DNA of 64,000 nt. Source: Bryoerythrophyllum caledonicum. Its lineage: Eukaryota > Streptophyta > Bryopsida > Pottiales > Pottiaceae. The DNA lies in contig OZ020522.1 of assembly GCA_963971425.1 (NCBI GenBank), positions 5,244,168 through 5,308,167 on the forward strand. The letters run 5' to 3'. Both the position numbers and the translations under genes were made by a program. Shown here one piece after another: positions 38,150-64,000 of this stretch. Position 1 is the stretch's first letter; each line of letters starts with the position of its first letter. The notes under the pieces were generated by a model. The model did not search any database and was not told the DNA's origin. It was given only the letters and a program-made list of their open reading frames with translations.

Positions 38150-38158
38150 TTGGATTAG
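38150..38158. repeat. MULE target-site duplication (right)
   Basis: TTGGATTAG, identical to 28146-28154. After it, the Copia-1 RT frame continues with VSNQVILI upstream of the catalytic YVDD. Confidence 0.95.
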
Positions 38159-40582: not shown

Positions 40583-40587
40583 TATGG

Positions 40588-41277
40588 CTACAACATATAA
40601 TTTGAAAACTTCTTCCCTACATAGAGTGCTGATGTACTATCTGATGTCAAACTCATGTTTTTTATGAGTGTCTCTTCTTGGATCAAGTCTGCTATTAACG
40701 ATTGTAATGTAATTCTAGGTTGTCTTCTCAAAGAACTTATGAAGGACTTGTAGCTTGGAGGCAAACTTGGCATTAAGGTAAGAACTGCCTCATCATCTGG
40801 AACTGCTGATCCCGCTGCCAGCAATTGTTCAAGATGTGCTCTGAATGTGTGAATGTGTTTAATAACACTATCATTTTCTCTCATCTTCAAGGTATATAAT
40901 CTATCCTTGAGATACATTTTTGTCACTGCATCTTGTGATTCAAATAACCTCTCTAATTCTTGCCATGCTAAATGAGCAGCTTTGCAAGACTGAATATGTG
41001 AAACTATATTGTTTTCTAGGCAATTATTAATGATTGTCAAGGACAAAGCATCTTTATCTTCCCATGCGCTTATACTCCCTACTCCTGTGGTAGGTAAAGT
41101 TGGGGTTCCAGCAGCAACTTCATCTGCTGATGGTGCCATTGGTAAGGATTCACTACCACTTACAATGGGCCATAGTTTTTCAGCCTTGAAAATCAATGTT
41201 AGTCTATGTTTCCATATGTTATAATAAGAACCATCAAATTTGGTGACACGACTAATGTCAATCTTATGTGTTGTCAT
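40588..41277 (-). CDS. Copia-1 Gag (UBN2-type), truncated before the zinc knuckle
   Basis: A 229-residue frame starts MTTHKIDISRVTKFDG and carries the typical plant copia Gag helices (YYNIWKHRLTLIF, LERLFESQDAVTKMYLKD, LLAAGSAVPDDEAVLTLMP). The related Gag of Copia-2 continues for about 90 more residues with a CCHC zinc knuckle before protease. Here that segment is missing, and the frame ends at TAG after KKFSNYML while pol continues in another frame. The deletion removes nucleic-acid binding and uncouples Gag from Pol. Confidence 0.85.
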   Translation of the reverse strand: MTTHKIDISRVTKFDGSYYNIWKHRLTLIFKAEKLWPIVSGSESLPMAPSADEVAAGTPTLPTTGVGSISAWEDKDALSLTIINNCLENNIVSHIQSCKAAHLAWQELERLFESQDAVTKMYLKDRLYTLKMRENDSVIKHIHTFRAHLEQLLAAGSAVPDDEAVLTLMPSLPPSYKSFISSLRRQPRITLQSLIADLIQEETLIKNMSLTSDSTSALYVGKKFSNYML

Positions 41278-41278
41278 T

Positions 41279-41587
41279 TCAATAACCTTCTCTTAAAATG
41301 GCTTGTATTTCCCATTCATCAATATAATCTTCACTCAAATGTTCAAAGTTACCTTCAACAAAGTTAGCTGATGCTTGGAGGTATGTTGGAGGGGCATTGC
41401 TAATTCCGTATGTGTTTTCTTCAATTGGGAGGTGCTCTTGATCTTCTTCAATTGGAGAATCTGGAATTGGAACTTGCAAGAAAGCATTTGTGAGATTTAC
41501 ATGTATGAATGGTATTGTAGCTTGGATTTCAACTATGTCATGTTCTTCCTCATTTGAACAATCTAACTCTGGTTGAGGATAGCACAT
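41279..41587 (-). CDS. Copia-1 leader ORF (102 codons)
   Basis: It lies between the primer-binding site and gag. It starts ATGTGCTATCC and its TGA ends one base before the gag ATG (TGAAATG). The product is acidic (EEEHDIVEIQ, DEWEIQAILREGY) and resembles no domain known to me. Being open over nearly the whole leader suggests either a real upstream ORF with reinitiation at gag, or a leader without selection. Copia-2 has a shorter ORF in the same place. Confidence 0.4.
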   Translation of the reverse strand: MCYPQPELDCSNEEEHDIVEIQATIPFIHVNLTNAFLQVPIPDSPIEEDQEHLPIEENTYGISNAPPTYLQASANFVEGNFEHLSEDYIDEWEIQAILREGY

Positions 41588-44417: not shown

Positions 44418-47273
44418 TTAAAATACAAAACATGCAAACGTAAATTTAACACACCACCCTCCACTCTCCCCGTCGGGACGACGGGTACCAACCCTAGTTT
44501 TATATGTTATTTGATTTAGCTCAAAGTTGATAGTCTCGATTAGTTCATTGATTTTTGAATAATTTATTTTAGGCACATAATGATGATCATGTGATATTGT
44601 CGATGATGATATTGGAATTTCTTTAAACTTTGAAGCTTGACGCCATTTATGTCGTTGTCGTGAACAAACATGATACTTATTTGAGTATGATTTGTTCTTA
44701 TGTTCAAAATTTCTCTTTATAGCTTGTTGCTTATCTTGTTTGGTTTTATGATATGCTTCAGTGTTATAATAGTTTGCCTTACCATTTGATTTTTGACATT
44801 GATTTTTATACTCCAATAATTTCATATTAGATTGAATTTGTCTAGTTCTTGGACTTAATTGATTTATTGCTTTCAATTTTTGTAAATTTTGATGAGTTTT
44901 GGATATTGGACAATCCATTTGTCTTGTATTTCTCCCACTCCAAGACTTACCAAAATTATTGCAATATACACATAAATTGTCTTGTCTCCCACATAATTGA
45001 GTGTTACATATATGGGAAAGTAGAGGGATGAAAGGTCTTACATACGTCATAAGAGCTTGAACCTTTGTTGATGTAAGGTGTTGTTGAGGAATATCAATCA
45101 TTCCCAATTGTTCCGTACAATAGATATGTTTGTCTTTAGGTAAGGATTTTGTTAAAATGTCGGCTGTCATATTTTGAGTAGGTACATGGGATACTGAAAT
45201 TTCATTAGCAATTAATTTCTCACGTGTAAAATGATACTGAGTGTCCACATGTTTACTACGTGAATGAAATTTTGGATTAGCACTAAGTGCAATGGCACTT
45301 TGACTATCACAGTATATAGGGGTTGGTGATAATTGGGGAAATCCCAACTCAAAGAGTAATTTTCGAAGCCAAGTAGCTTCGGCAGTTGCTTTTGCTAAGG
45401 CCATATACTCCGATTCTGTTGATGATAAAGCTACACTTGTTTGCTTTTTATTGCCCCATGATATTACACCACCCGTTAGAATAAAACAGTAACCAAAGGT
45501 GGATCTTCTAGTATCCTTGTCCCCTGCCCAATCTGCATCCGAGAAGCCGTGTAATGAATTTTCATTTTCTTGTTTTTGGTATTTGATACCATATGATAAA
45601 GTTCCTTTCAGGTAACGCATAGTGCGTTTTAATGTTTGATAATGAGATTTCTTTGGTTCGGATAAATATTGAGCTAGACTATTGATTGTATATGCACAGT
45701 CAGGACGAGTATTGACTGTGGTATGGATTAGGCTACCGATCATTTGAGAATAAGGGAAAGGACTTAATGTTCCAATATCCGTTTGGTCATCTTCTGTATC
45801 TTTACTTAGTCTTACACCAGGTGACATAGGTGTAGGTAAGGGGTTACAATTTAGCATGTTGTATTGTATGAGCTTTGATTTTATATATTGTTGTTGATGC
45901 ATAATTAACCATCCTTTTTCTCGATTTCTTATAATTGCGTTTCCAAGTGTATAATGCAATTCTCCATCATCCGTCATTTCAAATTGACTTTGAAGGTTTG
46001 ATTTGAGATCTTTGATGAGAGATATTTTATTACTTGTCAATATACAATCATCTACATAAACGGTTAAAATTATAAAACCCGATGATTTATCTCGTTTGAT
46101 GTAGATACTAGCATCTGCCTCTAGTCTTGTGAAGTCTTGAGTAATAAGATATTGATCCAATCTCAAATACCATGCTCGGGAAGACTGCTTAAGTCCATAC
46201 AAAGATTTAAGTAGTTTACAAACAATATTAGAGGCTGGAGGTGGATAGAATCCTTCGGGAATCTGCATATAGATTTCTTCTTGGAGGTGCCCGTTTAAAA
46301 AGGCTGTTTTTACATCTAGTTGATGGAGTTCTAAATTGTATTGAGTGGCGATAGCTAACAAAACCCGAATTGAAGAAAGTTTTACAACTGGAGAAAACGT
46401 TTCTGTATAATCAAATCCCGGAATTTGTGTAAAGCCTCGAGCTACTAGGCGGGCTTTGTACTTATCTATTGTACCATCAGATTTGATTTTAATTTTGAAT
46501 AGCCATTTACAACTAATCGGTTTTCGATTTGGCGGAAGAGGAGTTAATATCCAAGTTTTATTTTTATTTAAAGAGTTGAATTCTGAATTTATGGCGTTTT
46601 GCCATAATTGACCATCCGGTCTATTGAGAGCTTCCTCTAAAGTTTCTGGGTTGTTCAATGCAACTTGAATTATGTTAGCTTGGTTAGATTGCTTGGATTT
46701 CTTGCAAGGTCTTGTAAATGGCTTGGATGGTTGATGTTGAATAGATTCAATTAATTTCTTTGATGGGTTTATTATTCTTTTTGGTCTTGATGAAGTAGTA
46801 GGTGGAGTAGGTTCTTTATTTATTGAAGTGACCTCCTCTTGATGCTCAGAGAGGTCTTCATTTTTGTGTTCTAGACTAAGTTGGCTAAATGTGTCTAGAA
46901 GATCTTGATGAAGATCTTCATGTGAGGGTGAATCTATAATTGGTATCCTTGAAGGTTCACTTGATTGTGATTCTGATTGAGGTTGAAATGAATGACTTTG
47001 ACTTTGAGGTGTACCTGGATTATTTTGTAAAGTGATTGGTTGTACAATAGGTGTTGGATGTGCCGGTAATTGTGAACTTGATGGATTTGAATAGGTGGGT
47101 AAACTTTGAAGTAATTCAAGATTAGGTGGATCTTCTTCAAAAGTTTTTATTGCAACCTCCGGCATGTTAATCTTTTCATCAAATATGACATCTCGAGAAA
47201 TTATGATTTGTCTAGTTTTGACATTCATTAATCTATATGCCTTGGATTGCCTTGGATTGTTCACTATATCCAA
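44418..47273 (-). pseudogene. Copia-2 pol, 3' part (RT, RNase H, extension)
   Basis: The 951-codon frame has a Ser/Pro/Gln-rich linker, then RT (ARLVARGFTQIPGFDYTETF, QLDVKTAFLNGH, LYGLKQSSRAW, VYVDDCIL), RNase H (DADWAGDKDTRRSTFGY, STESEYMALAKA, SKHVDTQYHFTRE) and SLPKDKH. About 220 further residues follow, sharing KVQALMTYVRP and GKSWSGR with Copia-1. The last part runs into the foreign DNA at the broken 3' end (VGTRRPDGESGG onward). The start given is only the opening of the frame; the true protein begins at gag (49396). Confidence 0.88.
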
Positions 47274-47305
47274 GAAATATAGCCTCTATTGAGTGTGAGT
47301 CAAGT
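47220..47305 (-). other. Double frameshift in Copia-2 pol
   Basis: Compared with Copia-1, the frame is lost in an A run just after FINKDNRQK (about 47300), and again at a 10-bp duplication CCTTGGATTG (47240-47259). Between them the KLDSHS and EAIFLGY residues are readable in a third frame. Confidence 0.8.
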
Positions 47306-49396
47306 TTTTTGTCTATTGTCCTTATTTATAAATACATAAGCCTTTGATCCAAATATTCTTAAATGAGCCAAATTGGGTGGTCGTTTGAACCACACTTCAT
47401 ATGGTGTTTGATTTGTACGAATAGATTTTGTAGGACTCCTATTTTGCAAATAATTTGCAGTCAAAAGCGCTTCGCCCCAAAATATTTTAGGCAATTTTGC
47501 AAAAGAAAGCATTGTTATCACTGCATTTATGAGAGTTCTATTCTTTCTTTCCGAAACCCCATTCTGTTGGGGTGTGTTTGATGTGGTAAGTTCTCTTTTT
47601 ATACCTTCTTGTGTACAATAGTCATTGAATTGATTTGATAAATATTCCCCTCCTCTATCGGATCTTAAAGTTTTTATTTTATAATTTGTTTGATTTTCAA
47701 CCAAACTTTTATAATTCATAAATTTTTCAAAAGCTTCTGATTTATGTTTAATCAAATAAACATGGCAATATCTTGAAAAATCGTCTATGAAAGTGATAAA
47801 GTACTTATATCCTGTATGAGTACTAACTTGTAAAGGTCCACAAATGTCCGAGTGAACTAGTTCCAATAATTGGCTAGCTCTATGTGCTCCAATTTTAGGG
47901 AATTTTTCCACATGTTGTTTACCGGTTGTACATGATGGACAAAAGCTAAGATTATTTTCATTAAATTTATCAAGGCCTTTGGACATCATTTGAATTTTCC
48001 CTAAACGTTCTCTATTAATGTGACATAGTCTAAAATGCCATAGGTCGGCTTTGTTTGAAGGTATGGTTGCAGGAACTGCAACTTCTTTTTGATTTGATAA
48101 CACAGTGGAGCCCAATTCATACAAATCATGATTTAGTTTGCAATCAGCTATAATTTCACCAAATCGATTAAATAATCTTAAATGGCCAGATTTTATTCGT
48201 ACCTCACCTCCAACTTGGTCTAGTTGTTTAGCAGAGAAAAGATTTTTCGCAAGCCGAGGAATGTAAAGTACATCAGGTACTTGTTTTGTTAACCCATTTG
48301 TGAGTCGTATGGTTACATCACCATGGCCTTTAATTTCGTATGAGGTCAAGTCGTCTATTAAATATACATACTGTTGATTGTCATACTTTTTATAATTAGC
48401 AAATGCACCAAATTCATGGCACATGTGTTGGGTGGCTCCACTGTCCACATACCAACTTGATGTCGACTCTTCCTTAGTCATTAAAGCAGTAACTACGTAA
48501 AGTCTATCAGACTTGGTTATAATATTTGACTTGTTCTGAAAATTGTTTTTCTTTTCAGCTGCCATTCTGGCCCTGCAATCTTTAATTGTATGACCAGGCT
48601 TTTTACAATAGAAACAGCTTCTTTTATCAAACGAATCACTTTTTCGTTCGAAAGTTTTATTATTTTCACTTTTAGAAAACTTGTTAAATTTATTCACAAA
48701 TGGCTTCTTGCCATAATTATGATTGTAGGCTTTTCTTTTGGTATATAATACTGATTGATTTTCAGAACTGGAACTCATGTCTTTCATGAGTGTTTCTTCT
48801 TGAATCAAATCTGCAATTAATAATTGCAATGTGAGGCCGGGCTGCCTCCTCAAAGAACTGATAAAAGTTCGATAACTTGACGGTAAACTGCGCATCAATG
48901 TTAAAATTGCTTCATCGTCTGGAACTGGACTTCCTGCAGCGGCCAATTGTTCCAGATGTGCCCTGAATAAATGAATGTGTTTAACAACACTATCCGAGTC
49001 CTTCATTTTCAAAGTGTGTAGTTTTTCTTTAAGGTACATCTTCGTAATCACGTCTTGTGATTCAAAAATTCGAATTAGCTCCAACCATGCGTCTTTGGAT
49101 ACTTTACATCCCTGTATATGCGAGACTACGTTATTATCAACACAGTTGTTTATGATCGTCAGAGACAAATTGTCTCTTTCCTCCCAATGGGCCATGCTTC
49201 CTGCACGTGTGGCAGGTAAAGCCTGGGCACCTGCAGCGATTTCGGCTGTTGTGGGTAAATGGGGCTTGGGTTCATCCCCATTAACTATTGACCATAGCTT
49301 TTCTGTTTTGAAGATTAACGTCATTCGGTGTTTCCATATATTGAAGAATGTTCCATCAAATTTCGGAACATGGCTAGTATCAACTTTTTGAGACAT
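47300..49396 (-). pseudogene. Copia-2 gag-pol, 5' part (Gag, zinc knuckle, protease, integrase)
   Basis: The 698-codon frame starts MSQKVDTSHVPKFDG. Gag helices resemble Copia-1. The zinc knuckle CFYCKKPGHTIKDC lies at about residue 270, protease WYVDSGATQHMC at about 313, and integrase zinc-binding (LWHFRLCHIN, SFCPSCTTGKQH) and core (HSDICGPLQ, FIDDFSRY, TPQQNGVSERKNRT) follow. The frame is otherwise uninterrupted and ends at the frameshift near 47300. The first His of the integrase zinc site is in HFRLCHIN, where Gly is usual before the second His. Confidence 0.9.
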
Positions 49397-49405
49397 TGCC
49401 TAGTG

Positions 49406-50036: not shown

Positions 50037-52445
50037 ATGGATCATGAGAGGTGTGTCCCATCGTCGGGCATGGCTGGAAGTTCCTCTAGAGCAACCGGTG
50101 TAGATCCAAATATGATAAAACTTTGCGAGTTCTGTAAATTATTTGATTTCCATGTCCTTGGCTTAAAAATGGAAAAGCATAAGGAGCAATAAAAACTTAG
50201 GAAAGAAAGGGCTGAAAGAAAATCACGTGGAATTGAAGAAATCATGGTCGTTGCAAAGGTCCAAAGATGTGTTATCTGTGGAGTGCTTGCTAAGTTCATA
50301 AAGAAAACAAGGTTATTTTGTGGGAGAGCTCATTTCTTCATAGATTTGTTTCCAAGGACGATGTGGGCATTCAGCAATGAGGTTGATGCCCAAGGAGAGA
50401 GAGGGTTTTTAGAGCGATTCATGGTAGAGCTCGACCCTCCATACAATAACCAAGGAATGAAACCTCTCATTCAATTCCAGAAATGCAGCAATCCTCCTTT
50501 GGATCATCGCTATTGGGAATATGATGGGATGAAAGAGGTCATTACTTTTGGAGTGGATCTCTCAACAGAGGATCGAGAAAAGCGTCAAAGGTCATTACTT
50601 TTGGAGTGGATCTCTCAACAGAGGATCGAGAAAAGCGTCAAAGGTCATTGGATCGAAGTCGTTATTTGGAAGGACGTTTGAGGCCAATGCAAGTGGATTA
50701 TAAATTTTTTTTGAATTGGACTTCCCAATGCCGTGGTAAGCATGGTCAGTTCTGCAATTTATGCGATGGCCTCAATTCTCCACCTAACCACGTCAAACCT
50801 CCACCAAAGAGGCTTCGGCTTATTGATGTCACGACTAGGCGTCTTGTTTGGAAAGATCTTGTCGAGAAGCCCCCATGTGTATTCGTCCCGTATGTGGCTC
50901 TGAGCTATGTCTGGGGAGAGGACAAACTTGGCAAGCATAGAAAAATGCCGAAGCTTGGATATAGAGGGGGTGAATACGTGTCGGAAGATACAGAATTGTC
51001 ACGGGAAAGAGTACTTGCAACCATTGACGATGCCATGACAGTAGTACGTGAACTTGGACAACAATAGATCTTTGGGTTGATTGTCTTTGCATCGAGCAAG
51101 ATGATGAAGACAAACAAGTCTACTTCATGAATGCTATGGACTCCATCTATGGATGTGCATTGTTTACAATTGTTGCAGCTTTTGGACATAATGCACAGTC
51201 AGGGCTTCCCGGTGTTAGGGAGCCTCGAAGGAAGCAAAAAGTTTTGAATTTGAGAAATGGCATATCATTACAGCAGACGCTCGATTCGAAGGAAACCAAA
51301 GAGGAATATAAAAATTATAGATATCTTGGAGGATCCACTTGGATCACAAGAGGTTGGACTCTTCAAGAGAAGACTTTCTCGCGAAGATCCTTGATATTCA
51401 CTGAGGACCAAGTTTATTGGAAATGTCAGTTAGGCACATGGTGTGAAGATAGCTTTTGGGTGAAATCCCAGAAGCTTCTTCGTTTTTGTTTTCGGGATCT
51501 CATGCTTCGCTTATCCTTGCATATTGTTGAGAAAGGTGAGCTATTTGGAAAGAAATATCGGTTGTTGGTGGAGGAGTATACGCGGCGTGAGGTGACAAAG
51601 AATAGTGATGGTCTTCGAGCACTTTAAGGTTGCTTGAATGCTTTAGAATTGGGACCTCAAAAGTGCAAATTTCTTTGTGGCCTGCCACTATATAACCTAG
51701 CCGTTGCATTGACATGGAATGTTGATTGTCTTTCTCCTAAACCAACGAACAAAAGAGGCTCTTCATCCAGAGAAAATGAAGAGGATACTAAAGAGGGTGA
51801 GGAAAGGGACATAATTTGGGCATTTCCAAGTTGGACGTGGGTTGGATAGGTAGGAAAGGTATCAGACACGGTATACCCGGGATACAATTTGGATTTGTAT
51901 TACCTGGAATATGATGCTGCAAATGAACTTGTCGAAGCGAACCGTCGTAGTATTTACTCTCGAGGGCGCTAGAGATTCAAATAAGAAAAGAAGGTGATCA
52001 GAAGGACGTTCATGTCGATGACATTGCAGTTCAAAAAGCTCTCTCTAAGGAGACTGTTACTTTAAAAATATTTTTCTTTTGGAGCAGCACTAAAAAGTTT
52101 GATGTCCAAGTTGTGGAACGGAAACAAAATTATACTAGTCTACGGGCTCTACATGGTTGCTTCAATGTGTCAAGGGATTTTGATTTTCTTATTGGAGAGA
52201 GTGCTACACATGATGAGTGTGAGCTTGTTGTGATTGGGATCGCACCGAATGATGGTTATGGATATATCAATAATGATGAGCGCACTATAATAGTTGGTTG
52301 ACAGTCCGAGGCCAAGTACGTTAAAGTAATTGTTTTAGTATGCTATGAAAAGGATGGCGTTCTCTATAGAATGGGACTAGTGGGCATCAGTGCTAAGCTG
52401 TGGATAAAACAGAAACCAGAGTGGAAATTGATTTGTCTTGGTTGA
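50037..52445 (+). pseudogene. HET-domain protein pseudogene
   Basis: The frame starts MDHERCVPSSGMAG. The N-terminal region has CxxC pairs (LCEFCKLF, RCVICGVLA). The HET core begins YVALSYVWGED, continues LWVDCLCIEQDDEDKQ and MDSIYGCALFTIVAA, and has TRGWTLQEKTFSRR, all hallmark motifs of PF06985. A C-terminal region with YRMGLVGI and a final Trp/Leu-Gly stretch follows. Lesions: TAA at 50190, a 53-bp tandem duplication at 50538-50643 that shifts the frame, a frameshift near 51064, TAA at 51625, TAG at 51847 and 51970, and TGA at 52299. In fungi HET domains mediate non-self cell death; the role in plants is unknown. Copia-2 lies just upstream of the ATG. Confidence 0.85.
50538..50643 (+). repeat. 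53-bp tandem duplication inside the HET gene
   Basis: GTCATTACTTTTGGAGTGG begins identical units at 50538 and 50591. Because 53 is not a multiple of three, the duplication destroys the frame. The copies are identical, so it is recent. Confidence 0.93.
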
Positions 52446-54421
52446 CATGTCACCTGTGCCGACGTATAAAGTTTCTAGGATTATATGAGTCGTAGGCTTG
52501 AAAGCGCTCCTTTGCTAATGTATTTCTCATGATGTGTCATGCAAAATACATTATTAGTAACATGATTCCATTTGAATTTTACTTTGTATTCCAATCAATG
52601 TTTATATCATGTAGTACATTGAATTTGTTCTTGAGAAATAGTTGAATCGTTACATAGCCAACTTTGCTGTAAAAAAACCACCTTGGAGAGTGTGCAAGAG
52701 CTCTGGATAAATAAAGAGTCAAGTCACACTAGTTAGAATGTTTGGCATGTGAATACTATGAAATTTATGTAACTATAGACTTCCAATTGGCCACTCATGT
52801 TCATTAAGTGCAATTTAGATGTTGGCATCAAATTGTAAAAAACACTTGATTTCCAAACCCTCCGTAATTTATGCTTTACTTTAAACAGAAGGAGTGGTTT
52901 CCATGTCATTTTGTACATGGTAAATGCATTGTGATTATCCCCTTAAAATATTAACTACCTTATGCATCGGTCAGTTTCATACATAATTCACAATGTCCAT
53001 AATTATTGCAAAATTCAACAAATTTGTTCGGATAATATTCATGTAATGTCTAGATGGTGGCCATGTAATACCTAGATGATACCCATTGTGTCCAAACCAC
53101 AATGATTTGGACATAAATATATCGGCAGAGAGTGTCCAAGAACTTACCGGTTTGGCTACTAGGTAAAGAATGCATCCAAGTAATATTAACCCAATGTGCT
53201 AAGACTTCTAGTTTAATGTATTTGACCTGTGTTTAATTACAAAACTCAGTAGAGATGGTTATTTGTTGAATGCAGCTCTATAGGGTATTGACAATTTTCA
53301 CATAATTACCATCTAAGCTGTCTTCTTGAAACAATGAATTCATGTGTAACTTTCTTAATACAATTGACATGTAGGAAATCTATCATGACGAGATAATGGT
53401 CTACACAATACTGCATGTTTAATATACAAAGATGACATCAAAAGATTTTGTCTACCAACCCTTTTTATATTGTTTTAGTGGGATAGCCATAGTGGCTATA
53501 TAGGGCAAGGGAGTTGTAACACTTTTGGCTTTAAACTAAAAACATACAAAACCAAAATTTTCTTCATAAATATACATTTTGGAGAATTCATCTCCATAAG
53601 CATAGATTTGTACATCTTTTTTGGCGACAGGATGGGTTTCCCGATCTCTATCAGTGCTAATATGGCAGTATGGTAACAACCATCAATGAAGTTTTCGTGA
53701 CATAAAATTTTAACTTTTCCTTTTGGAAATAATCCTTCTCTGGAAAAATAAACATTTGCCAATTTGGTCTCGAGTTGCCGAAAAAGAAAAGGGTTGCCAT
53801 CTGCTGTAGTGTTTCAAATGCATTCTTATTTTTGGAAGGTTTTGCACAAAAGTGTTAATAGTGCCCTATTAATACATATAGCCATTCTCTATCACTTTCT
53901 AGATTTGCATCTTCACATTATGATTTATGTAGGAATGTTCACTACACTACTCTAGTAATGATAATTATTGTACACCCACTAATTGATCTTTTATAATGCT
54001 ACGAGTTTTTACTCTTGATGAATATTTATTGATCCCCCTCTTTGAATAGTTACATTGATCCCCCTCTTTGAATTGTCGTGCACAAACACATCGTGCAAAG
54101 ATAACATCGTGTCAACAGGTGAGAGCGCACAATTAGAGGCACACTTGGAGCAATAGAGACTAAACTTTCACCGTTGCCTCCGTAGACAACGAAAACGATA
54201 GTTCACAAAAGAAACTATCAACCACTCAGCAACCTAGGCTAGGAAAAAAGAAATAAATACCTAGACCTCAACATTTAGTAATTGGTCTACAAGGACCCCT
54301 TTACTAACAAATAAGTGATAAACACTCACAAATCACAATAAGTTGAGTCTATGCCACTCTTCAAGAGTGAAAATATGATCTTGATAAGGCTAATGATGTG
54401 CAACACGCACACACCCTCATC
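52446..54421. other. AT-rich intergenic DNA
   Basis: No gene is supported. 53020-53095 is a diverged inverted copy of sequence near 6930-7010. ATTGATCCCCCTCTTTGAAT occurs twice at about 54029-54074. The gypsy-2 3' LTR should lie here, but none could be identified. Confidence 0.4.
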
Positions 54422-55545
54422 TCATAAGTTTTTCACCTCACAAACTCGGAAGATCACCTGTCTCGCTGTCACATCCAAGGTGGTGGGCTCTGCTTGCTGC
54501 AAATACACATAGTCTCCAGGAGTAAACCGTCGCACTTGCGGTCGGAAGCCTCCTCCCCGTATCGTAGCATAGCGCAACGTATCCCGATGTGAGAGGTTCT
54601 CCAATGCCATAGGCATCACCCGCTTGAACAAATCCGCACGTTGCTCACACACTTGAGCCCACGTGTCTAGATTGTCTATGTTAGCCAACACGGTGTCAGC
54701 ATATGCTCAAATGGCCTTCAATAACACGGATTGCCTTTCAAACAACAAGAAGTATGGAGAAAATGACGCTAAAGATGCTTGCTTGCTAAACCGGTAGCCC
54801 ATGGCTATCCACGGTAATTGCAAGTCCCAATCTTGATGATGTCCCTTCTTCAAACTATATTTCCGAAGCCCCCTCTTGACGGTTTGCACCATGCGCTCCA
54901 CCAATCCATCCACTTTGGGATGATCCCTTGAAGGAGTGCGGTGATCAATTATCGCTTCCTCACACAATGTTTGAAACTCACCCAAGAATTCCCTTCCCTA
55001 ATTTGTGAGAACTTCCGCTGGAGCTCCAAAGCGACTCAAAACACGATTAAGAAAAGAGAAGCGGCCTCCTCACTAAATTTGTCAGGCAATGTCACCAACT
55101 CTATCCATTTCAAGAAGTGTTCAATCATGACCAACACATACTTATTGTGTCAAGGTGTCACTAGCAATGAACCAGCAAAATCTAAGCTCCACCTATATCT
55201 CAAGCCCATAATTGGCAACAATTGCAATTGTGGCATCGGAGCGTTAAAAGACGCTTGCACACGATCACAAATCATACACCGAGCTACCAAAGCTTGAACT
55301 TGAGTTTGCATTCTTTGCCACCAATAGTGAAGTTGAAGCAAGTTATAGGTCCTCCGCACTCTAAAATGCCTAAGGTCTTCATGTGTGTCCTTGATGAGCT
55401 GCACTCTCTCCAATGGAGTCGGCACAACCTTCCGCGTGCCATCCGGCCACACCCTCAAAAGGTGAGTCCTCCCACACGAACCGTTTGGCTTGTTGTAAAA
55501 CCCAATCTCTCTCCTTAACGGACCACGTAGGCACCATTTCTCCAT
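54422..55545 (-). pseudogene. Gypsy-2 integrase
   Basis: The N-terminal zinc-binding part (HEDLRHFRVRRTYNLL, ARCMICDRVQ) precedes the core: SLDFAGSL, a middle segment with VLVMIEHFLKWIE, then an Asn-Pro-rich third motif (DHPKVDGLVERMVQT, where the usual His-Pro-Gln-Ala-Asp-Gly-Gln is altered but the Glu is kept). The C-terminal part has FTPGDYVYLQQ. Stops near 55148, 54995 and 54705 and one frame change interrupt it. Confidence 0.75.
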
Positions 55546-55639: not shown

Positions 55640-57213
55640 TGCTCATGTGTCATTTCCACGCATCGCCAACACACTCAAAAAGGCCGAACAATGCCAACTT
55701 GGCAACGTATCGGCTTCATCCTCGCCGTACCACCTAGCGCCCGTAGCATCCGCTTGGTTTGGAATAGGATTGCGGCTAAGGCCGTCGGCATCCATGTTCA
55801 CCAATTCTGCTCTGTGCACCACCTTGAAGTTGTATTCTATTAACATCAAGGCCCACCGCGCTAGCTTACTTGTTAGTTTGTCAACTCCATCAACCACTTT
55901 AAAGGTTGATGATCCATGACTAACAAGAACTCGTTACCATAAAGGTAACATACAAAATGAGCAATTGCCTATATTGCGGCCAAGCATTCCCCTTCATACG
56001 AGCTATACTGATCCTCCGCGTTGTTGTTGGACTGACTGGCGTACGCGATCACGAGCTCCTTCCCGTTGTCATCCATTTGCATCAACACCGCACCGATTCC
56101 TAACGCACTCCAGTCCATATGCAGCTAGTATGTCGTCCCTACTATTGGCCTTCGAAGTATAGGTGCCGATGCCAAGCAGTCCTTCAACTCTTGAAAGGCC
56201 GCCTCTTGCTCATCTCCCCATATCCAAGGTTGATCATTCCTTGTCAACACGATTAATAGTTTGGCAATAGCAGTGAAAGTCTTCACAAACTTTCTATAGA
56301 AATTACACAACCCTAACAATGCACGTAGCCTACTAACATTCCTTGGTCTAGGAATAGATATCACTATTTCAATTTTGCTAGCTACCACACCCAATCCACT
56401 TGGATATATCATGTGGCCTAAGTACTTGATTCGGTCAAAATAGAATTTGCACTTACCAGGATGCAACTTCAAACTGTGGAGCCTCAATCTAGCAAACACT
56501 TCCATAAAATATAGCCTATGCTGCCTACGATTCGTGCTAAAGACAACAATGTTGTCAATGTAACATTTCACGAAATCCAAGCCCGAGAATACTCGGTCCA
56601 TAATCCTCTGGAATTCGGCAGGCGCATTCTTCAATCCAAATGGTAAGAACTTCCATTAGAACAACCGGTCCTTCCCATCTTTGTCAATGCCCCAGAACAC
56701 GGTCTTCTACTTGTCTTCCTCTCTTAGTCCAAACTGGTTATATCCAGAGCGCAAGTCCAACGTACTAAACACCTTGGCGTGACCAATAGCCTCAAAGTTC
56801 TCCTCCGTCGTTGGCATGGCATAACGATTCGACTTGGTGAATTTATTAATCCTCCTATTGTCCCGGCACATCGTCTTCTCCGTCCAATTACCGTAGATAT
56901 CTTTCTTGGATGGCATAATCGTCGCGGATGCATACTCACAATCTAATGAAGCCAACTCCACTAGCCTTGCAACCACCAACTCCTCCGTACAAGTGCGTAT
57001 CATCCTCCGTTCAAAATCGCTATACTTCTTCGGCTTCTGGTATATTGGTGTTTTATCCGTCAAGTTGATACGTACTTCTTGCCCCTTCAACACTCCAAGA
57101 TCTTCAAGACTATAGACAAAACAATCTAAGTATTCCTTGAGGAACTCATGTTCCTCTCTCTTAATTGCTCCATCCGCCATGCCTACTATTGGTTTCCAAG
57201 TATCCTTGGTCAC
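55640..57213 (-). pseudogene. Gypsy-2 reverse transcriptase and RNase H
   Basis: RT starts near TKDTWKPIVG and shows EFLKEYLDCFVYS, KPKKYSDFERRMI, MCRDNRRINKFT, STLDLRSGYNQFGL, KNAPAEFQRIMDRVF and CYIDNIVVFS. The catalytic YxDD is YIDN here, a substitution expected to abolish activity. RNase H (the tail KLARWALMLIEYNFKVVHR and NMDADGLSR) follows. Stops occur near 56700 and 56660 and around 56120-55900. Confidence 0.8.
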
Positions 57214-57258: not shown

Positions 57259-57600
57259 CTATTGAATGCCAGATGGAGAAAGCTCTTCTTCCCCCATCCC
57301 CATCATGCTTCCAAGTCCTTCCAATTGGCTTAGTCTGTTAATATCCTCAATTTGGTAAGCTGTGTGTTCTTCCATGAACATCTTCTCCACAACTTCCTCC
57401 AAATCCTTCGTTTGGTGGGCCAATTCCCTACTTCGGCTCCAATCCTTCACTCCATGGAAAGGATCCTCTGTCTTGGGTGTTGCGAAAAAGTTCGCGGTGC
57501 TCCACATGTTCCATGGGTGAGGTGCCAAGGCCTTCTCGCCCCCAACCACTTAGCCTGTCACCTTGACAGAGACAAATGGTTCTCCGGCCGCCCGCAACTC
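57259..57600 (-). other. Gypsy-2 linker between methyltransferase and RT
   Basis: In the same frame as the methyltransferase C-terminus and RT, it reads FHGVKDWSRSRELAHQTKD and EDINRLSQLEGLGSMMG. No domain is recognised, and it is interrupted by TAG at about 57550 and 57259. It is probably an inter-domain spacer of the polyprotein. Confidence 0.5.
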
Positions 57601-57689
57601 AGAAGACCCCATGTAACCGGTTAAACTAGAAGCCAACCGCTTCTGTTCTGCCACTAGCAACGAAACGATCAATATCAAGCAATTGAAGT

Positions 57690-58640
57690 TCATTGCTTGC
57701 CCAAGTAAAAATCGCGGTTGTTGCTCCGAGATCCCAGGCACATTGGTAGTGCTCGTGAAATATCCCATGGCTCTCTCCCATTCATCCGCATCGGGCTCCA
57801 CCATATATTGAGACACGAAATCTTGAACAAGACCCGGGCCATTATCCTTAAAGGCATACGACCGAGCAAAACTAACCAACGTAGGCAATGCCCTACGTGG
57901 TTCTCCCTTGCCGTTAACCACCGCCAAAGGTGCTTGGTTGTCATAGTAAACGCGACGCAGTGCCCTATGAAGATCCTAGATATCACTCACATAGACATCC
58001 GGCCATTTCATACGATCCACAACGGACTGTAACAACTCTTGAGGAGAAAAATTTATCCACCACAATCGTGGCCCGTGGGCGATGTGCTCGCAATCCCACC
58101 ACAGCCGCATCCAACAACACGGGCAAACCAAGGGTCTGCTGTATGCGGTGCATGCCCTCCAATGTCCTTGACCTCGAGCTACTCACCACTGGTATATTCT
58201 CCATAATGTAACCTGGTAGGCGCTTTTGAGAGGTTTGAAGCAAATGCATTACACGGATCATATCATGAAACCGCAAAGAACGAGTATCTTTCAACCCGTT
58301 CTCATGTCCAGCCATTGACAATCCTTGACATGGCCATCCTGCGATTACAAGTTCTACATGGCCAACACGGTGAATGTCCTCTGCTGAAAGCAAAGCAATA
58401 CCACCAACAAGGGTGGAAAAGGAAGTCTTGATGGCACTAGTGGCCAACAAGTCAGGGAATTGGGTCCTCAATCGCCGTGAATGCCGCTTAGCTACATGTC
58501 TTGCTGCCTCATCAACATCTACGTAGATGTAGCATTTGACCTTGATCCCTGCTTGCAACACTACCGCCAAGCCACTTCCAATCCCGCCGAATAACTCCAA
58601 CAACACAATACCATCCTTTAGTGCTTTCCAGTGAATGGTG
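57690..58640 (-). pseudogene. Cytosine-5 DNA methyltransferase domain inside gypsy-2
   Basis: Motif I is LLELFGGIGSGLAVVL, motif II YVDVDEAARHV, motif IV VIAGWPCQGLSMAGH with the catalytic Cys, motif VI YIMENIPV, and motif VIII VVGLRAHRPRATIV. After a one-base insertion in a T run (about 58055-58060) the domain goes on in another frame with a target-recognition-like part, a motif IX-like RRALPTLVSF, and a motif X-like FLLGQAMNFN. Motif order is not permuted, and the 'G-P-V-L-L-D-A' stretch ahead of motif VIII resembles DNMT3/bacterial-type enzymes rather than plant MET1/CMT. The open frame runs upstream without start into the protease region (LPLDTSTIHWKALKDG), so the enzyme is part of the polyprotein. 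A TAG near 57973 also breaks this copy. All catalytic residues visible are intact. Confidence 0.85.
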
Positions 58641-58799: not shown

Positions 58800-59573
58800 T
58801 CCGTGTCTCCACCACTTGTGTCACCACATGGGTATCTATCTCATGAAGTGTAGGAGTATCATTCGAGAAATTATTAAAACCCTCATGAAACCATCATGGT
58901 CTCACATCCATGCCTCCCGAAAAGGCAAACACATCTGCAAGATTGCAAGTCAAAACTCGAATAAAATGAGCTGGCAGCTGGGCCTTCTACCCATCTCCTG
59001 CTTGTCATCCTGGTCTATAACTTGTATTTTCCTCCCAGAAATCCAAGGTGAACCCCATGGATATAGCATCGCCGAGCCCACCAAGACATCATATGACTTG
59101 GCCTATGTTACTAAGGCTTTCACCTTCATAAAGCTCGCATTCTGGACATCAGATTCATTGAGTTGTAACATCAACTCCGCCTTCGTGATGCCTGTAGCAT
59201 GCTCCGTACCCCCCATGGAAGTGTTAATTGTCCATAGACACTTCTCCAAAGTGTCCCTAGTCAAACCCAACCCCTCAAGGGCAGATGCTCCCAGCATCAA
59301 TGGTTGAGCTCATGAATCCAAAAGCACTCGTCGAGGTATAAAAATCCTCTCCTTGGGTCCAACAAGTTGAAAAATCCCACAGCAGTTGTCAACCACCACC
59401 ACACTAGGTGTAATGGATGACCTCTCGATTGCAGGTCTGGCGGCCATGGTCTTGACACGCATCGCTGCTAAAAGCAGCCCCTCCTCGTTGTCCTCTTAAC
59501 TCTTATCCACATCTCCTTCAATCACTTCCGTCTTTAACGCATTGACGCCCGTGGAGTTACCCAACTCACACAT
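58800..59573 (-). pseudogene. Gypsy-2 retropepsin region
   Basis: A retropepsin-like active site is seen as RRVLLDS, a TGA, then AQPLMLG; the Gly of the usual Asp-Ser-Gly is replaced by the stop at about 59309-59311. It is followed by ALEGLGLTRDTLE and YDVLVGSAMLYP, the latter like the second structural motif of the fold. Further stops occur near 59101 and 58960. Upstream sequence back to 59573 is an Asp/Glu-rich connector to Gag. Confidence 0.65.
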
Positions 59574-61360
59574 CTAAGCCACCATCTTGAAGACCATTGC
59601 CGGACTGAAGCTCTCTTCTGACATTAATTTAGCAAAAAATAATGAAGCCTCACAAACCATGTTTGTCGCTTCTCTCACCACCATATTTAATGGCTCTAGA
59701 ATCCTAAGCGTAGGGCGAGTTGTTGGCACCCCCCGACGCGTTGGATGCACCATGAAAGATGTTGGCACCATCTCCTCCAACGTGAAAGACTCTGGCAACC
59801 GAGTTTGCCAGTTGTCCTTTCGATTTTGAGGACCCAAAGTTGGACTTGCTCCACGTAGAACCTCCGTGGTCACTGGTGTTTGACTCCGCATAAATGCATA
59901 TGCCTCCCGTGAGCCATCCATGATAGCAAGTCCCATGACACTCAGCATATATTCCCCGAATTCGTCATCATCAGGCCTAAACCCACCCCGAGCATGAAAA
60001 TTAGGAGTGACTTGGGGCTTCTCACTCACTAAAGCAGCATTTGTGTTCATGGCCGCCATCTTGGCCTCCAACTGTGCGAATTTGGCCTTCCAACCTTTCT
60101 TCTCTCCTCCGGAAGACTTGAACTCCTTCTCCTTGTTGTTTGTCTTGGCTCCCTTGCCTCCGATAGGCTTCTACTCGGGGTGAAGCTTCCAACACTTAGC
60201 CTTGGAATGTCCCTTGGCACCACAACTACAGCAATAGCCACCAGCTTGGAGGGTGACGACTTGCTTTCCTTGCAATCCTTCCTCAAATGTCCCGGTTTGC
60301 CACAATTAGAGCATAATGCCTTAGTGTCTGTGGCATAGGAGGGAACTGTAGCCTTGGCCACCTTGACCTTCTCAGAAACCTTTTCTTCACGTTTGAGAAA
60401 TCCCATGGCCGCTTTCTCCTCCAATAAATTGATCTCAATTCTCTCGGAAGTCTCGAACACAAATCTCAAAGTCGGTGGCTCGCCCAATCGCAATGCCTCA
60501 TTGTGAACTAAGGTCTTCAACTCCTTCCCTAGGATGTTGTACCAGTGCTGCTCCGCTTGGTGCTCCATGACTCTGTGAGTAGCAGAAATCAGTCTCTGCA
60601 ATATCGCATGAGCTTCCCGCAAGGATTCATCTCATCTTTGCGCAAAAGACCTCAATGCCTTCATCTTATCCGCCCGTTGACTATGATAGTCTCAACAAAT
60701 CTGTGTGAAGAATGTGGCCGTAGAATTAAATGAAGGTGGAATAGCCACCGTTTTCATCGGTAGGCTCAAATCCTCGGCACTACTCGTGCCCTCTTCCTTC
60801 TTCCCCTTTCCCTCAAGTGATAACACACTTGGCCCTCTGCCGAATACGTCCGCGTAATTTGGTGCATAGAAATTCCTCCATGCCAATATCTCCGTGAGGT
60901 GAGCCGCCTCGAATTCTCCATAATCCGCTAACGGAGCTCCCTCTAGACACCCAAATAATGCCCTCCACACCATGTAAGGGTTGAATTTGGGGTTGCAAGA
61001 CTTCTGAAGTTCACACCGCATGGTGAGCTCCCTCTTAAAGTCATCCACTTTAATAGTGCCCGTAGCACCTGAAAACCGTCGCATCCCACGTTCTCCTCCT
61101 CCATATGGTGAAGCCATCTCCTCCCAATCAAAATATGATTGCAAAGGCTTTCTTGGTAGGAAACTTGCACTATGTGCCGAAGATTCTACCACAAACTCAC
61201 TTTCTTCTACAAATGGTGTTAGAATTGTTTCTTCTATCTCTTGAGGTTGACTCTCAACCTCTCTTGTAGACCGATTTCGCTCGCCAACACCTACCGCAAA
61301 AGAAGTGTTCCTCCTAGTGAACCCCGGCCCCTTCCACCCCTCTAGGTTGTCAACTAGCAC
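59574..61360 (-). pseudogene. Gypsy-2 Gag with two zinc knuckles
   Basis: It starts MLVDNLEGWKGPGF. The capsid-like part has FKRELTMRCELQKSCN and LTEILAWRNFY. Two TGA codons (about 60690 and 60630) precede REAHAILQRLISATHRVMEH. Knuckle one is CSNCGKPGHLRKDC. After a frameshift, knuckle two is CCSCGAKGHSKAKC, then a TAG near 60173. The frame then stays open through KMAAMNTNAALVSEKPQ to VPTSFMVHPTRRG and ends at 59574. The long post-knuckle segment may lead to protease. Confidence 0.75.
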
Positions 61361-62765
61361 GGTGTCGGGTAGAGAAGTCTTTACCTTGGGAAAATACTGG
61401 ATTTCTTGCTGCAGTTAGTTTTGGCTTAAGACATGAAAGACAAGGATAACATAAGAAGTATTAATCCTTGAATACATCATGTATACATACTTGTACCTAT
61501 ACCCTTTTTGTACGTATATGTAGAGTATTCCTATCAGTATACGTAGAGTATTTATATACGTACATGTAGAGTACTTTAATACTTGTATTTGTCATGTATA
61601 AATATAGTAGAACATACTATACAAATACATGATTTATACGTACAAGTATAATACTTTTATACATACATGTACAAAGTATAAATACGATCTACCATATACA
61701 AAACCGTATAAGTTTTGTACATACCTTCAAAATCCCGAATCTCCCTCTAAAATAATAGCCAAACTTCAAATAACCACCAAATTAGCATAAACACTTCAAA
61801 TCAGGAGTGCATTAGCTTTTTGGAAAGCTATCAAAGTGCTTAACAGAGGAAAAGAAAGATTAAAGCTCTACAAGGTACTGTTAAGAGTCCATAGCTCGTC
61901 AAAGGTCGTACTCCCAAATTCAGCATCAGCTGCACCTCCCTTTGCTTCACAGAGCACTCTGACTTCATACAAGCTTTGCCAAAGCCGAGTGATAGCTTCC
62001 TAGAAAGCTGATAACACCACCTAAGCTCTTTACAAAATTCGTCTTCAGAATCTATACCAAACGTTTTCTATGCTTAGTTGAAGTTGGTGCCTACTTCCAC
62101 TCTTGAATTTAGTCGGTAGCTCAACACCCTCTCACTTTCAAAGCCATAACTTTGTCTCAAACAATCTAAATAAAAAGTTACAATGCTCCATAAAAAACTA
62201 ACACAATAACACTTGACTTGCTCAAATTTCATAAACAAAAACACTATAAACAAGTTTCTACAAGCTTTTGAAGTTTCGGTCTTCTAAATTTCTTTACAGC
62301 AGACACTATCCCACTCAAACACTCATAGAAATTACACACAAAGCTCAAATAGAGCGTGCTATATCATTATGAAACCAAAACAACAAGATGTACAAGCTTC
62401 CAAAATCTCATAGTAAAATTCGTAGTACACACTGAGCTCTTGCTCTCCAAAAACTGCACACCGAAAAACTCCACTCTCCTGGAGGAGAGAGGGGAACCCG
62501 ACCCCTTTGCCTCCCCCCAAAGTCAACACCAGCGCCTCATGGGCCTCAACTAGTCATTGGCTAACTCCCTTAAGCTTACTTCAGCCTTATCTATCCCTTA
62601 TCTTAGCCATAAGGCATCAAAAGTCTACCAAATGGTAAACTATTTCTACCTTTCATCTACCAAATTTCTAACATGCAAGGTGAAGTTTGGAAACATTAAA
62701 AACTAAACAAATAAAATCAAATATATGTCTAAAAGAGCTTGAAAAGAATTTCAAGAGGAACTTCA
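61361..62765. other. Leader or flank of gypsy-2, no gene
   Basis: No coding region is supported. At 61480-61720 motifs like TACGTATA and ATACTTGTA recur, giving a TA-rich patch. The 5' LTR should lie in this stretch or beyond, but its ends could not be recognised. Confidence 0.35.
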
Positions 62766-63227
62766 CTACAACTGCAAGAACTTGAGGATGCATTGAAGGA
62801 TAAGAGCAACAAAGTCAGCACGAGTAGCCTTGGTCAATGGATTAACTGGACCTTCAAGCCAACGTTGATGACCGCCACTCCCTTTGACAGGCCTAAGACA
62901 ACAAGAGTATTGATTGTCATTTAGGCCTTCAAAAATCCCTCCAAACGTCACATCTCGAGTACCAGGTTCAACACACCCAACCTGCAATAGAATCACCAGG
63001 GCACGAGCATCTTGTTGAAGATTGTCGTGCCACCGCTGCTCCACACGAGGTTGCTTTGGCGGCCGAGAAGGCCCAGCTTCTTCTTGTGGACGCTCATGCA
63101 GTGGTGCAGGACTAAGCGGCAGAAGAGTACAAACCGGCAGTTGAGATAAAGAAAAATCCAGCTTAAGCTCTCGTTGAAGCTTTTCATCCTGAGACTCAGA
63201 AAAAACTCTCCAATTCGACATGTCCAA
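62766..63227 (-). CDS. Unassigned ORF, 153 codons
   Basis: It starts MDMSNWRVFSESQDEK, has a Pro-rich middle (PLSPAPLHERPQEEAGPSRP) and then VGCVEPGTRDVTFGGIF, ending ALILQCILKFLQL. Composition is protein-like and the frame has no stop, but I recognise no family. Same strand and upstream of gypsy-2 gag, so it may belong to that element's leader or to a neighbour. Confidence 0.3.
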   Translation of the reverse strand: MDMSNWRVFSESQDEKLQRELKLDFSLSQLPVCTLLPLSPAPLHERPQEEAGPSRPPKQPRVEQRWHDNLQQDARALVILLQVGCVEPGTRDVTFGGIFEGLNDNQYSCCLRPVKGSGGHQRWLEGPVNPLTKATRADFVALILQCILKFLQL

Positions 63228-63435
63228 AAAAAATTCAAAACAACTACATAAAACTGATGAAGCTCTAAATGAACCTTCTTCTTATAACACAAATACTTTG
63301 TAGAAGGCGTCACCTTGAAGCTTTCCCAAAGATGTGATCTCTTTTTCTCCAATCAAATCCACTCAAATAAAATATAAAATAAAAATATAAAACAATGGAT
63401 AGGGATATAAATCCCTTCAGCATGCTCTGATATTC

Positions 63436-63730
63436 GCCAAGCCGCAGAAGTCCAACTGGTAAAGTGCTTCAAGCGCCATAGCACTGGTCCGGGTTCGAAA
63501 CCCTTTGGACCCGTATGAGCATGCGAATGGCCACGTGGCTTGGCACTGCTAGTGAAAACTAGGCAGGAAACTACCAGTTGGCGCCACCTACCCCCCCTGA
63601 GCATGTGAGAAGATGCAGAGACTCCAAGTTTCGTGGTTAAAACCATGGTCCTTTCTCTTCCCCCTTCATTCCTCTGATCTCCCCCCCTCCCTTTTGTCTA
63701 TACTTTTATTTTTCTTAGTTTTATTTCTAT
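63436..63730 (+). mobile_element. tRNA-derived SINE
   Basis: An A-box-like sequence (GTCCAACTGGTAAAGTGC, about 63449-63466) and a B box (GGTTCGAAACC, 63492-63502) are spaced as in tRNA genes. A roughly 150-bp unrelated body and a T-rich 3' tail (from about 63640) follow. The head does not fold as an intact tRNA. This is the structure of plant tRNA-derived SINEs; target duplications were not resolved. Confidence 0.55.
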
Positions 63731-64000
63731 TTTCTCTGAACACTACTCTCAATCCATTTCACACTGTATTTACATATTAAACCATTTCCTTACACGACAA
63801 CGGTCAATCAAAGAAGTGCCTCGCCTCCTGAGTGCCCTTTTTCTCTGGAGTGTAGATAGTCGGTGGTACTTTCCAATCGAGTAGCTCCAAGGTGAGTGTG
63901 TCCCACACATTGTTGGCACGCTCTCGCCACATACCTACTTTCCACTGCCACGTAGTGTGAAACAAAAAACCCTTACTTTCAAACTCAGTGAAGATGAGGG
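63731..64000. other. Edge sequence, nothing recognised
   Basis: Mixed-composition DNA without a supported gene, cut by the window edge. Confidence 0.4.

What the first reader, a model, noticed from the sequence alone, without database searches (positions are those of the whole stretch)
57690..58640. A cytosine-5 DNA methyltransferase is encoded inside a Ty3/gypsy polyprotein
Seen: motifs I (ELFGGIGSG), II, IV (GWPCQGLS), VI (MENIP), VIII (RAHRPRA), and after a one-base shift motifs resembling IX and X, lying between retropepsin and RT in one strand and order. The frame is open upstream into the protease region and no start codon is needed. Known: methyltransferases captured by Ty3/gypsy elements have been reported in dinoflagellates and in the charophyte Klebsormidium. 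A copy in what looks like a land-plant genome would extend that. Inference: the element could methylate its own DNA or influence host silencing.
Basis: partly seen in the sequence, partly recalled or inferred. Interest (0 to 1): 0.92.

Follow-up and report, generated by a model that had tools for sequence, protein, structure and literature searches.

The report
Retrotransposon family carrying a DNA methyltransferase
The window holds a decayed copy of a jumping gene that carries its own DNA-methylating enzyme, part of an abundant and recently active family in a land-plant genome with relatives in mosses and liverworts, so mobile elements in land plants can carry the host's main silencing enzyme.

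Summary
Confirmed, and larger than reported. A DNMT3-type C5-methyltransferase (MTase) lies between protease and reverse transcriptase in a dead Ty3/gypsy copy (61349-54074, minus strand). The domain is not private: the host genome (437 Mb, land plant) has at least 150 MTase places, and 117 of 117 best-scoring RT copies carry it. In 19 copies with open frames the MTase is under purifying selection (omega 0.15-0.21 within subfamilies; about 0.04 between them, dS near saturation).

Intact copies show the plan. ORF1 (Gag-CCHC-PR-MTase) ends at UAG in the readthrough-type context UAG-CAR-YYA (41 of 43 copies; 4 of 4 examined members of a second family). RT-RNaseH-integrase-PHD follows in the same frame. 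Ends are DIRS-like split repeats with 4-bp target duplications, A1 and A2 identical in both copies tested. Named relatives: Marchantia, Calypogeia, Sphagnum.

Most likely the MTase is made at Gag level, packaged, and methylates new cDNA (inferred). Closest known: KnitGypsy-Dnmt3 of the alga Klebsormidium, with the same repeat layout and enzyme class; sequences could not be compared. Verdict: a land-plant variant of a known kind.

The parts
63804..64000 (-). piece of the element's 5' leader, cut off from Gag by about 2.45 kb of other sequence (61350-63803)
   Evidence: blastn L043 74-270, 86.3% identity
60160..61126 (-). Gag, from the first conserved Met to the end of the zinc knuckles (CCHC near 60316-60269 and 60233-60190); one frame change. 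Borders estimated from the alignment
   Evidence: tblastn with intact copy L043 ORF1; zf-CCHC E=5e-6
58951..59417 (-). retropepsin-like protease, broken by frame changes and a stop in the active-site motif. Borders estimated
   Evidence: tblastn with L043 ORF1. Pfam protease models match relatives mostly under their cut-offs and over them in P0202, P0205 and P0217; no match at E 0.01 in L043 itself
57640..58612 (-). DNMT3-type C5-cytosine methyltransferase domain: motif I near 58597, IV (GWPCQG) 58339-58322, VI near 58204, VIII near 58090, X near 57783; frame change near 58077. Motif numbering recalled
   Evidence: PF00145 E=3.3e-10; tblastn 86% to L043 ORF1 residues 845-1095 and 77% to 1091-1360; DNMT3A best in PDB
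57262..57639 (-). variable C-terminal tail of ORF1
   Evidence: omega 0.39 between subfamilies
57259..57261 (-). UAG stop in the context CAA-UAG-CAA-CCA, a UAG-CAR-YYA readthrough-type context; RT follows in the same frame
56407..56883 (-). reverse transcriptase core
   Evidence: RVT_1 E=2.7e-17; tblastn L043 ORF2
55832..56220 (-). RNase H
   Evidence: RT_RNaseH_2 E=4e-4; tblastn L043 ORF2
54917..55410 (-). integrase (H2C2 zinc-binding domain, then rve core in two frames)
   Evidence: Integrase_H2C2 E=3e-14; tblastn L043 ORF2
54074..54369 (-). terminal repeat remnant: end of A2 (54369-54306) plus one B repeat (54305-54074). The PHD finger, the other B and most of A2 were not found in this copy
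   Evidence: blastn with L064 762-1058, 71%, and with L043, 93%

Best explanation
The window holds a dead copy of an integrase-type Ty3/gypsy retrotransposon family that codes for a DNMT3-like cytosine methyltransferase. In intact copies (shown) ORF1 = Gag-CCHC-PR-MTase ends at a UAG in the UAG-CAR-YYA context, and ORF2 = RT-RNaseH-IN-PHD follows in the same frame. Inferred mechanism: most ribosomes stop at the UAG, so the MTase is made at Gag level and goes into the particle in excess over RT and integrase. A few ribosomes read through and make the Pol part. The protease frees the domains. In the particle or pre-integration complex the MTase methylates the double-stranded cDNA de novo, so the new copy enters the chromosome already carrying 5mC. 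The PHD finger at the end of the integrase reads a histone H3 state at the target. Pre-marking would make the copy look like silent host DNA and limit damage at the new site.
For: Domain identity and class. Catalytic motifs in 19 own-genome copies: PC at motif IV in 19 of 19 (GWPCQG in 16), VENV 19 of 19, RAHRPR 19 of 19. Purifying selection on the MTase: omega within A 0.145 (bootstrap 0.079-0.249), within B 0.207 (0.129-0.316), A-vs-B 0.039 (0.021-0.064); linker and tail beside it are looser. MTase in 117 of 117 best-scoring RT copies. UAG-CAR-YYA at 41 of 43 distinct copies, with RT in the same frame, and in 4 of 4 examined members of a second family whose MTase is about 55% identical. Recent activity: A1 and A2 identical in two copies (371/371 and 366/366 bases). 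PHD in intact Pol ORFs, E=1.5e-9 and 2.3e-9. MTase and Pol identities fall together across lineages, with one near-tie reversed. Some retrotransposon DNMT3 domains methylate CG de novo in yeast (PMC5890265 section 10, read).
Against: No activity, expression, packaging or methylome data here. KnitGypsy-Dnmt3 itself gave no methylation in yeast, called inconclusive by its authors (PMC5890265 section 10). Readthrough is inferred from context alone; one copy of 43 has a sense codon and one is unreadable there. The copies used for omega were chosen for long open frames. A-vs-B dS of the MTase (1.77) is near saturation, so 0.039 only says that dN is far below dS. Within subfamily A the intervals for PR, linker and tail reach 1. 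Five more distant relatives (P0213, P0217, P0219, P0220, P0221) have Glu instead of Pro before the motif IV Cys.
Confidence: 0.55

Rival explanations
1. The MTase acts on host chromatin in trans: protein from many copies reaches the nucleus and adds methylation at other loci, changing the host methylome or diverting silencing, rather than marking the element's own cDNA.
For: DNMT3 class; high copy number; two retro-DNMT3 domains from Symbiodinium methylate the yeast genome when given a nuclear signal (PMC5890265 section 10).
Against: Fusion to Gag and protease in one frame points to the particle. K. nitens carries such elements with methylation patterns like land plants (PMC5890265 sections 9 and 11).
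Confidence: 0.2
2. The domain is kept for binding, not catalysis: it holds RNA or cDNA or SAM in the particle, or methylates RNA.
For: Five distant relatives have a changed motif IV (WECQ, FECQ, PECK). De Mendoza et al. suggest RNA methylation for the LINE type (PMC5890265 section 11).
Against: Motifs IV (PC), VI and VIII are kept in 19 of 19 own-genome copies; best match is DNMT3, not the tRNA enzyme DNMT2 (78.6 against 22.6 bits).
Confidence: 0.15
3. A passenger: a host DNMT3 fragment caught by chance and now decaying.
For: The window copy is full of stops and shifts.
Against: Purifying selection; 117 of 117 best-scoring RT copies keep it; conserved between families with about 55% identical MTases and in named bryophytes.
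Confidence: 0.03
4. The UAG is a plain terminator and Pol is made some other way (reinitiation or splicing).
For: Readthrough was not measured; one copy (L052) has a sense codon there.
Against: Same frame and the same UAG-CAR-YYA context in two divergent families; by my own count a random stop would fit about once in 1,500 with equal base use.
Confidence: 0.12

Closest known systems
KnitGypsy-Dnmt3 of the charophyte Klebsormidium nitens (de Mendoza et al. 2018, PMC5890265; sections 6, 9, 10, 11, 15 and passages read)
   Same: Ty3/gypsy domain set, DNMT3-type domain in the polyprotein, no introns, repeats laid out as in DIRS elements, several copies, purifying selection (Ka/Ks < 0.2 there; here).
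   Different: Here: land plant; at least 150 places; MTase upstream of a UAG-CAR-YYA stop together with Gag and PR; PHD at the end of Pol. A term search of that paper's main text found no readthrough, PHD, protease or Gag, and 'stop codon' only for mutated copies; its figures and supplements were not seen. Sequence similarity was not testable.
SymbioDIRS-Dnmt3 and SymbioLINE-Dnmt of Symbiodinium (PMC5890265)
   Same: Retrotransposon that encodes a C5-MTase; DNMT3 type in the DIRS form.
   Different: Those are DIRS (tyrosine recombinase) or LINE elements; this one has an rve integrase.
Plant Ty3/gypsy elements without accessory enzymes (window 10913-13207 looks like one)
   Same: RT-RH-IN order.
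   Different: RT region about 35% identical to this family; no MTase was reported there by any search, but its ends and whole Pol were not studied.
Host DNMT3 / DRM genes
   Same: Same enzyme class; motifs in standard order, not rearranged as in DRM.
   Different: Inside a Gag-PR frame, without introns, many copies. The host's own DNMT3 gene was not located.

Membership tests
Ty3/gypsy retrotransposon (Metaviridae) | Gag with CCHC, PR, then RT-RNaseH-IN (rve, H2C2) in this order | tested here: met
   the PR call rests on motif and relatives, see parts
Ty3/gypsy retrotransposon (Metaviridae) | two identical complete LTRs | tested here: not met
   split repeats A1...B1-A2-B2 instead, in 2 of 2 copies examined; ends TGTC...GACA with 4-bp target duplication. 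Called Ty3/gypsy by its proteins, not by its repeats.
DIRS retrotransposon | tyrosine recombinase instead of integrase | tested here: not met
   rve integrase found and no recombinase domain in ORF1 or ORF2 of L043 and L053
C5-cytosine methyltransferase, DNMT3 class | PF00145 with motifs I, IV (PC), VI (ENV), VIII, X in standard order | tested here: met
C5-cytosine methyltransferase, DNMT3 class | closer to DNMT3 than to DRM, DNMT1, DNMT2 or bacterial enzymes | tested here: met
   PDB profile search: DNMT3A/B/C 61-79 bits, 4onj 44 (a DRM by recall), HaeIII 35, DRM2 34, HhaI 32, DNMT2 23; no DNMT1 among the 51 listed. No rooted tree with host DNMT3 could be made.
KnitGypsy-Dnmt3 type elements | Gypsy proteins + DNMT3 + DIRS-like repeat order | tested here: met
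   against PMC5890265 section 9
KnitGypsy-Dnmt3 type elements | sequence kinship with the K. nitens element | not testable with these tools
   no hit shown or 48 is named Klebsormidium; most hits are unnamed
active methyltransferase | methylates DNA | not testable with these tools
   needs an assay

The most novel reading that the evidence does not exclude
One ancient clade of integrase-type retrotransposons took up a DNMT3 'writer' and a PHD 'reader' early in green-plant history and still carries both across bryophytes and perhaps algae. The MTase later changed place: before the integrase, after RNase H, in one branch (P0219-P0221), and between protease and RT, on the Gag side of a leaky UAG, in the other. 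These elements arrive in the chromosome with a methylation pattern that they write themselves.
Probability: 0.4. Interest if true: 0.85.

Novelty: new variant of a known kind. Interest (0 to 1): 0.7.

Why it matters
The detailed reports of cytosine-MTase retrotransposons that my searches found are from dinoflagellates and one charophyte alga (PMC5890265). Another paper mentions DAM- or DCM-encoding Ty3/gypsy and DIRS elements in stramenopiles, red and green algae and charophytes, and says such transposons are absent from land plants such as tracheophytes (PMC6338049, passages seen). This family is abundant in a land-plant genome, recently active by its identical repeats, and present in Marchantia polymorpha, a plant with good genetics. 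That makes it testable why a parasite would carry the enzyme class that hosts use to silence it. It may also inflate counts of DNMT3 genes in bryophyte genomes.

Tried and rejected
Private insertion: rejected (117 of 117 best-scoring RT copies carry the MTase). Chance match: rejected. Bacterial or viral origin: best match is DNMT3; Streptomyces and IMG/VR hits are weak (4 of 5 loci; 7 of 7). Two relatives carry bacterial names (P0149, Candidatus Obscuribacterales; L001, Synechococcales). I take both as eukaryotic DNA in bins, because L001 is a whole Gag-Pol element and the window's own genome holds 89-92% identical copies. Ordinary LTRs: none found round the window copy; explained by split repeats. 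LTR-age dating of the window copy: not possible, its ends are lost or outside. Viral contigs gave no element. RNA after the UAG was folded: z -2.1, -0.8 and -3.4 in three members, not consistent enough to use. Structure prediction never ran. Search of the own genome with the L001 MTase did not complete, so the copy number of the second family is unknown.

Full report
WHAT IS THERE. The ORF at 58732-57983 on the minus strand matches PF00145 (E=3.3e-10, 40.4 bits, cut-off 22). Around it, on the same strand, are a CCHC knuckle, RT, RNase H and the integrase zinc domain. Against an intact copy from the same genome (L043), the window copy is colinear from 61349 to 54421 at 89.1% nucleotide identity over 6954 aligned bases. 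Its coding part holds about 21 in-frame stops (overlaps of the aligned pieces included) and changes frame seven times. The methyltransferase spans about 58612-57640.

FAMILY. A search of 5.8 billion proteins gave 162 hits, 120 listed. A profile search gave 438 hits, 120 listed, with 7999 candidates scored. A search for long relatives gave 31 hits among 8000 candidates scored. Among the listed hits the plant names are Calypogeia fissa (P0083, P0129), Sphagnum troendelagicum (P0143, P0152) and Marchantia polymorpha (P0161, P0210, P0211, P0212, P0214, P0215). One has a bacterial name (P0149, Candidatus Obscuribacterales). The rest are unnamed or generic metagenome, ENA or lgn proteins. Several hold protease and MTase matches in one frame; most protease matches are under Pfam's cut-off, but P0202, P0205 and P0217 pass it. 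A Marchantia gene model (P0212) runs from MTase into RT that is 51% identical over 88 residues to the window's.

THE GENOME. The window lies in a 437 Mb assembly of 894 contigs. It has 15 dirigent matches, 14 over cut-off, and none in 14 prokaryote controls, which fits a land plant. A bryophyte is likely from the named relatives; this is inference, and the species was not identified. The MTase ORF gave 150 scored matches of 1662 candidates, the window's own included; 97 of 150 have no stop inside the match, and 19 of 150 lie in open frames of 1330-1371 codons without a stop.

DO COPIES LACK THE DOMAIN? RT of L043 gave 117 scored matches of 4787 candidates. Of these, 103 of 117 have a listed MTase match within 3 kb upstream on the same strand. 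One (C860) has it about 5 kb upstream. I fetched 700 bases at the expected place for the other 13, and 13 of 13 hold MTase sequence. So 117 of 117 of the best-scoring copies carry it. The 4670 unscored candidates, and more distant RT lineages, were not examined.

ANATOMY OF INTACT COPIES. Twenty copies of 8 kb, chosen for long open frames, fall in two subfamilies. All have Gag-CCHC-PR-MTase in one frame of 1332-1371 codons, except L052, where a sense codon replaces the stop and the frame is 1710 codons. ORF2 is 1041 codons in 8 of 20; in L043 and L053 Pfam finds RVT_1, RNase H, H2C2, rve and a C-terminal PHD finger. The stop between them is UAG in 41 of 43 distinct copies including the window's. 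In 40 of these the context is UAG CAA CCA and in one UAG CAA CTA; the other two are L052 (CAG) and L023 (decayed or misaligned). All 41 fit UAG-CAR-YYA, known from tobacco mosaic virus and the soybean element SIRE1 (both recalled). RT follows in the same frame.

A SECOND FAMILY WITH THE SAME PLAN. A 9285-base contig filed in a biocrust cyanobacterial bin (L001), most likely eukaryotic DNA in that bin, has the same plan; its two ends overlap by 127 bases. Its MTase is 55% and its Pol 65% identical to L043. Its stop reads UAG CAA TCA with RT in frame. Three places in the window's own genome are 89-92% identical to its ORF1 part and read UAG CAA TCA with RT in frame, 3 of 3 fetched. One copy of the first family (L053) sits beside decayed second-family sequence on both sides.

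ENDS. No LTR pair was found around the window copy. In copy L053, 371 bases upstream (A1) are identical to 371 bases downstream (A2), and 233 bases occur, identical, on both sides of A2 (B1, B2). Copy L043 of the other subfamily shows the same: A 366 of 366 bases, B 230 of 231. The outer ends are TGTC and GACA, flanked on both sides by CCTC in L053 and by AGGA in L043, so B2 belongs to the element. The B1-A2 junction reads ACGACAGCTGTCA in both subfamilies and in L001. Only these two copies were examined. This is the DIRS-like repeat order that de Mendoza et al. report for KnitGypsy-Dnmt3.

SELECTION. Nineteen ORF1 (9 A, 10 B; L052 left out) and eight ORF2 were compared by Nei-Gojobori. A against B: MTase omega 0.039 (bootstrap 0.021-0.064), Gag 0.047, PR 0.100, PR-MTase linker 0.21, tail 0.39, RT 0.022, RNase H 0.014, IN 0.069, C-terminal part with PHD 0.082. 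dS for the MTase is 1.77, near saturation; raw pN/pS is 0.096. Within subfamilies the MTase gives 0.145 and 0.207, both intervals below 0.32; PR gives 0.40 (interval to 1.06) and 0.14, linker 0.79 and 0.67, tail 0.67 and 0.40. The MTase is constrained like Gag, and more than the linker and tail beside it.

CLASS AND TREE. A profile of 15 relatives finds DNMT3A/3B/3C at 61-79 bits, then 4onj (a DRM by recall) 44, HaeIII 35, DRM2 34, HhaI 32, DNMT2 23. A tree of 30 element MTases splits into deep, well-supported clades: the window's group (six rows, 100/99), Marchantia-Calypogeia and kin (100/99), P0138/P0168/P0171 (100/99), L001-like (100/99), P0203-P0205 (100/99) and P0219-P0221 (100/99). P0213 and P0220 are long branches whose place is unsure. 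The tree has no host DNMT3 row, so it cannot tell one capture from several. In P0219 and P0220 the domain sits between RNase H and integrase, in P0221 before the integrase, each with PHD at the end. There PF00145 is under cut-off (P0219) or not found (P0220, P0221), and the match comes (E=8e-47 to 4e-38). P0213 has MTase-RT-RH-IN in one frame. Pol and MTase identities to L043 fall together: L001 65/55, P0213 54/42, P0219 40.9/35.2, P0220 40.4/35.7, the last two a near-tie in reversed order.

MECHANISM. Shown: domains, order, in-frame UAG in its context, repeats, target duplications, constraint, identity of repeats. Inferred: readthrough; Gag-level MTase in the particle; de novo methylation of cDNA before integration; PHD-guided targeting. 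De Mendoza et al. found de novo CG methylation by the Symbiodinium DIRS enzymes in yeast and none, inconclusively, by the Klebsormidium one (PMC5890265 section 10).

PRIOR WORK. In ten full-text searches I saw no listing or passage that reports this family in land plants; I opened six of the listed papers (one by sections, five by passages only). Six phrases naming DNMT retrotransposons occur only in PMC5890265, and five Marchantia locus names gave nothing. [quoted passage not shown] PMC6338049 (passages) says transposon methylases are absent from land plants such as tracheophytes. The passages I saw of PMC6453930, PMC9033089 and PMC10952607 say nothing of such elements. The library lacks most subscription journals and preprints.

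Noticed in passing
window 50528-51627 (+): A HET (heterokaryon incompatibility) domain gene split over two overlapping frames (PF06985, E=6e-19 for the second part), a fungal-type domain in a plant genome; a 53-base exact tandem duplication lies in it at 50536-50641.
   Followed up: partly
P0219, P0220, P0221: Relatives from ENA/JGI with the MTase-like domain after RNase H and before the integrase (P0221 starts at the MTase) and a PHD finger near the end; motif IV has Glu before the Cys.
   Followed up: partly
G000:C14:16016358-16017317 (-): A single full-length PF00145 match (218 bits, profile 3-322) in a 370-codon open frame without introns, unlike the element copies; could be of bacterial or viral type.
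   Followed up: no
window 61350-63803: About 2.45 kb of other sequence splits the element's leader; near 63450-63520 the letters look like a tRNA-derived SINE (A- and B-box-like words, read by eye; Rfam reports nothing in the window at its thresholds).
   Followed up: partly
window 28155-28799 and 37536-38149: Inverted pair of about 640 bases, 83% identical, next to copia sequences on either side of 28-38 kb.
   Followed up: no
L064, L066, L001 (B1-A2 junction): ACGACAGCTGTCA is identical at the repeat junction in two subfamilies and in the distant L001, with the palindrome GACAGCTGTC, which looks like a joined pair of element ends.
   Followed up: partly
L043 4359-4458, L053 4365-4464: A possible long-range stem (CUGCUCC or CUGCUUC with GGAGCAG) after the UAG in both subfamilies; energy no better than shuffles in L053.
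   Followed up: partly
window 10913-13207 (+), 37814-41292 (-), 44418-49399 (-): A second Ty3/gypsy element and two copia-like elements with long open frames (Pfam run only on 10913-12370).
   Followed up: no
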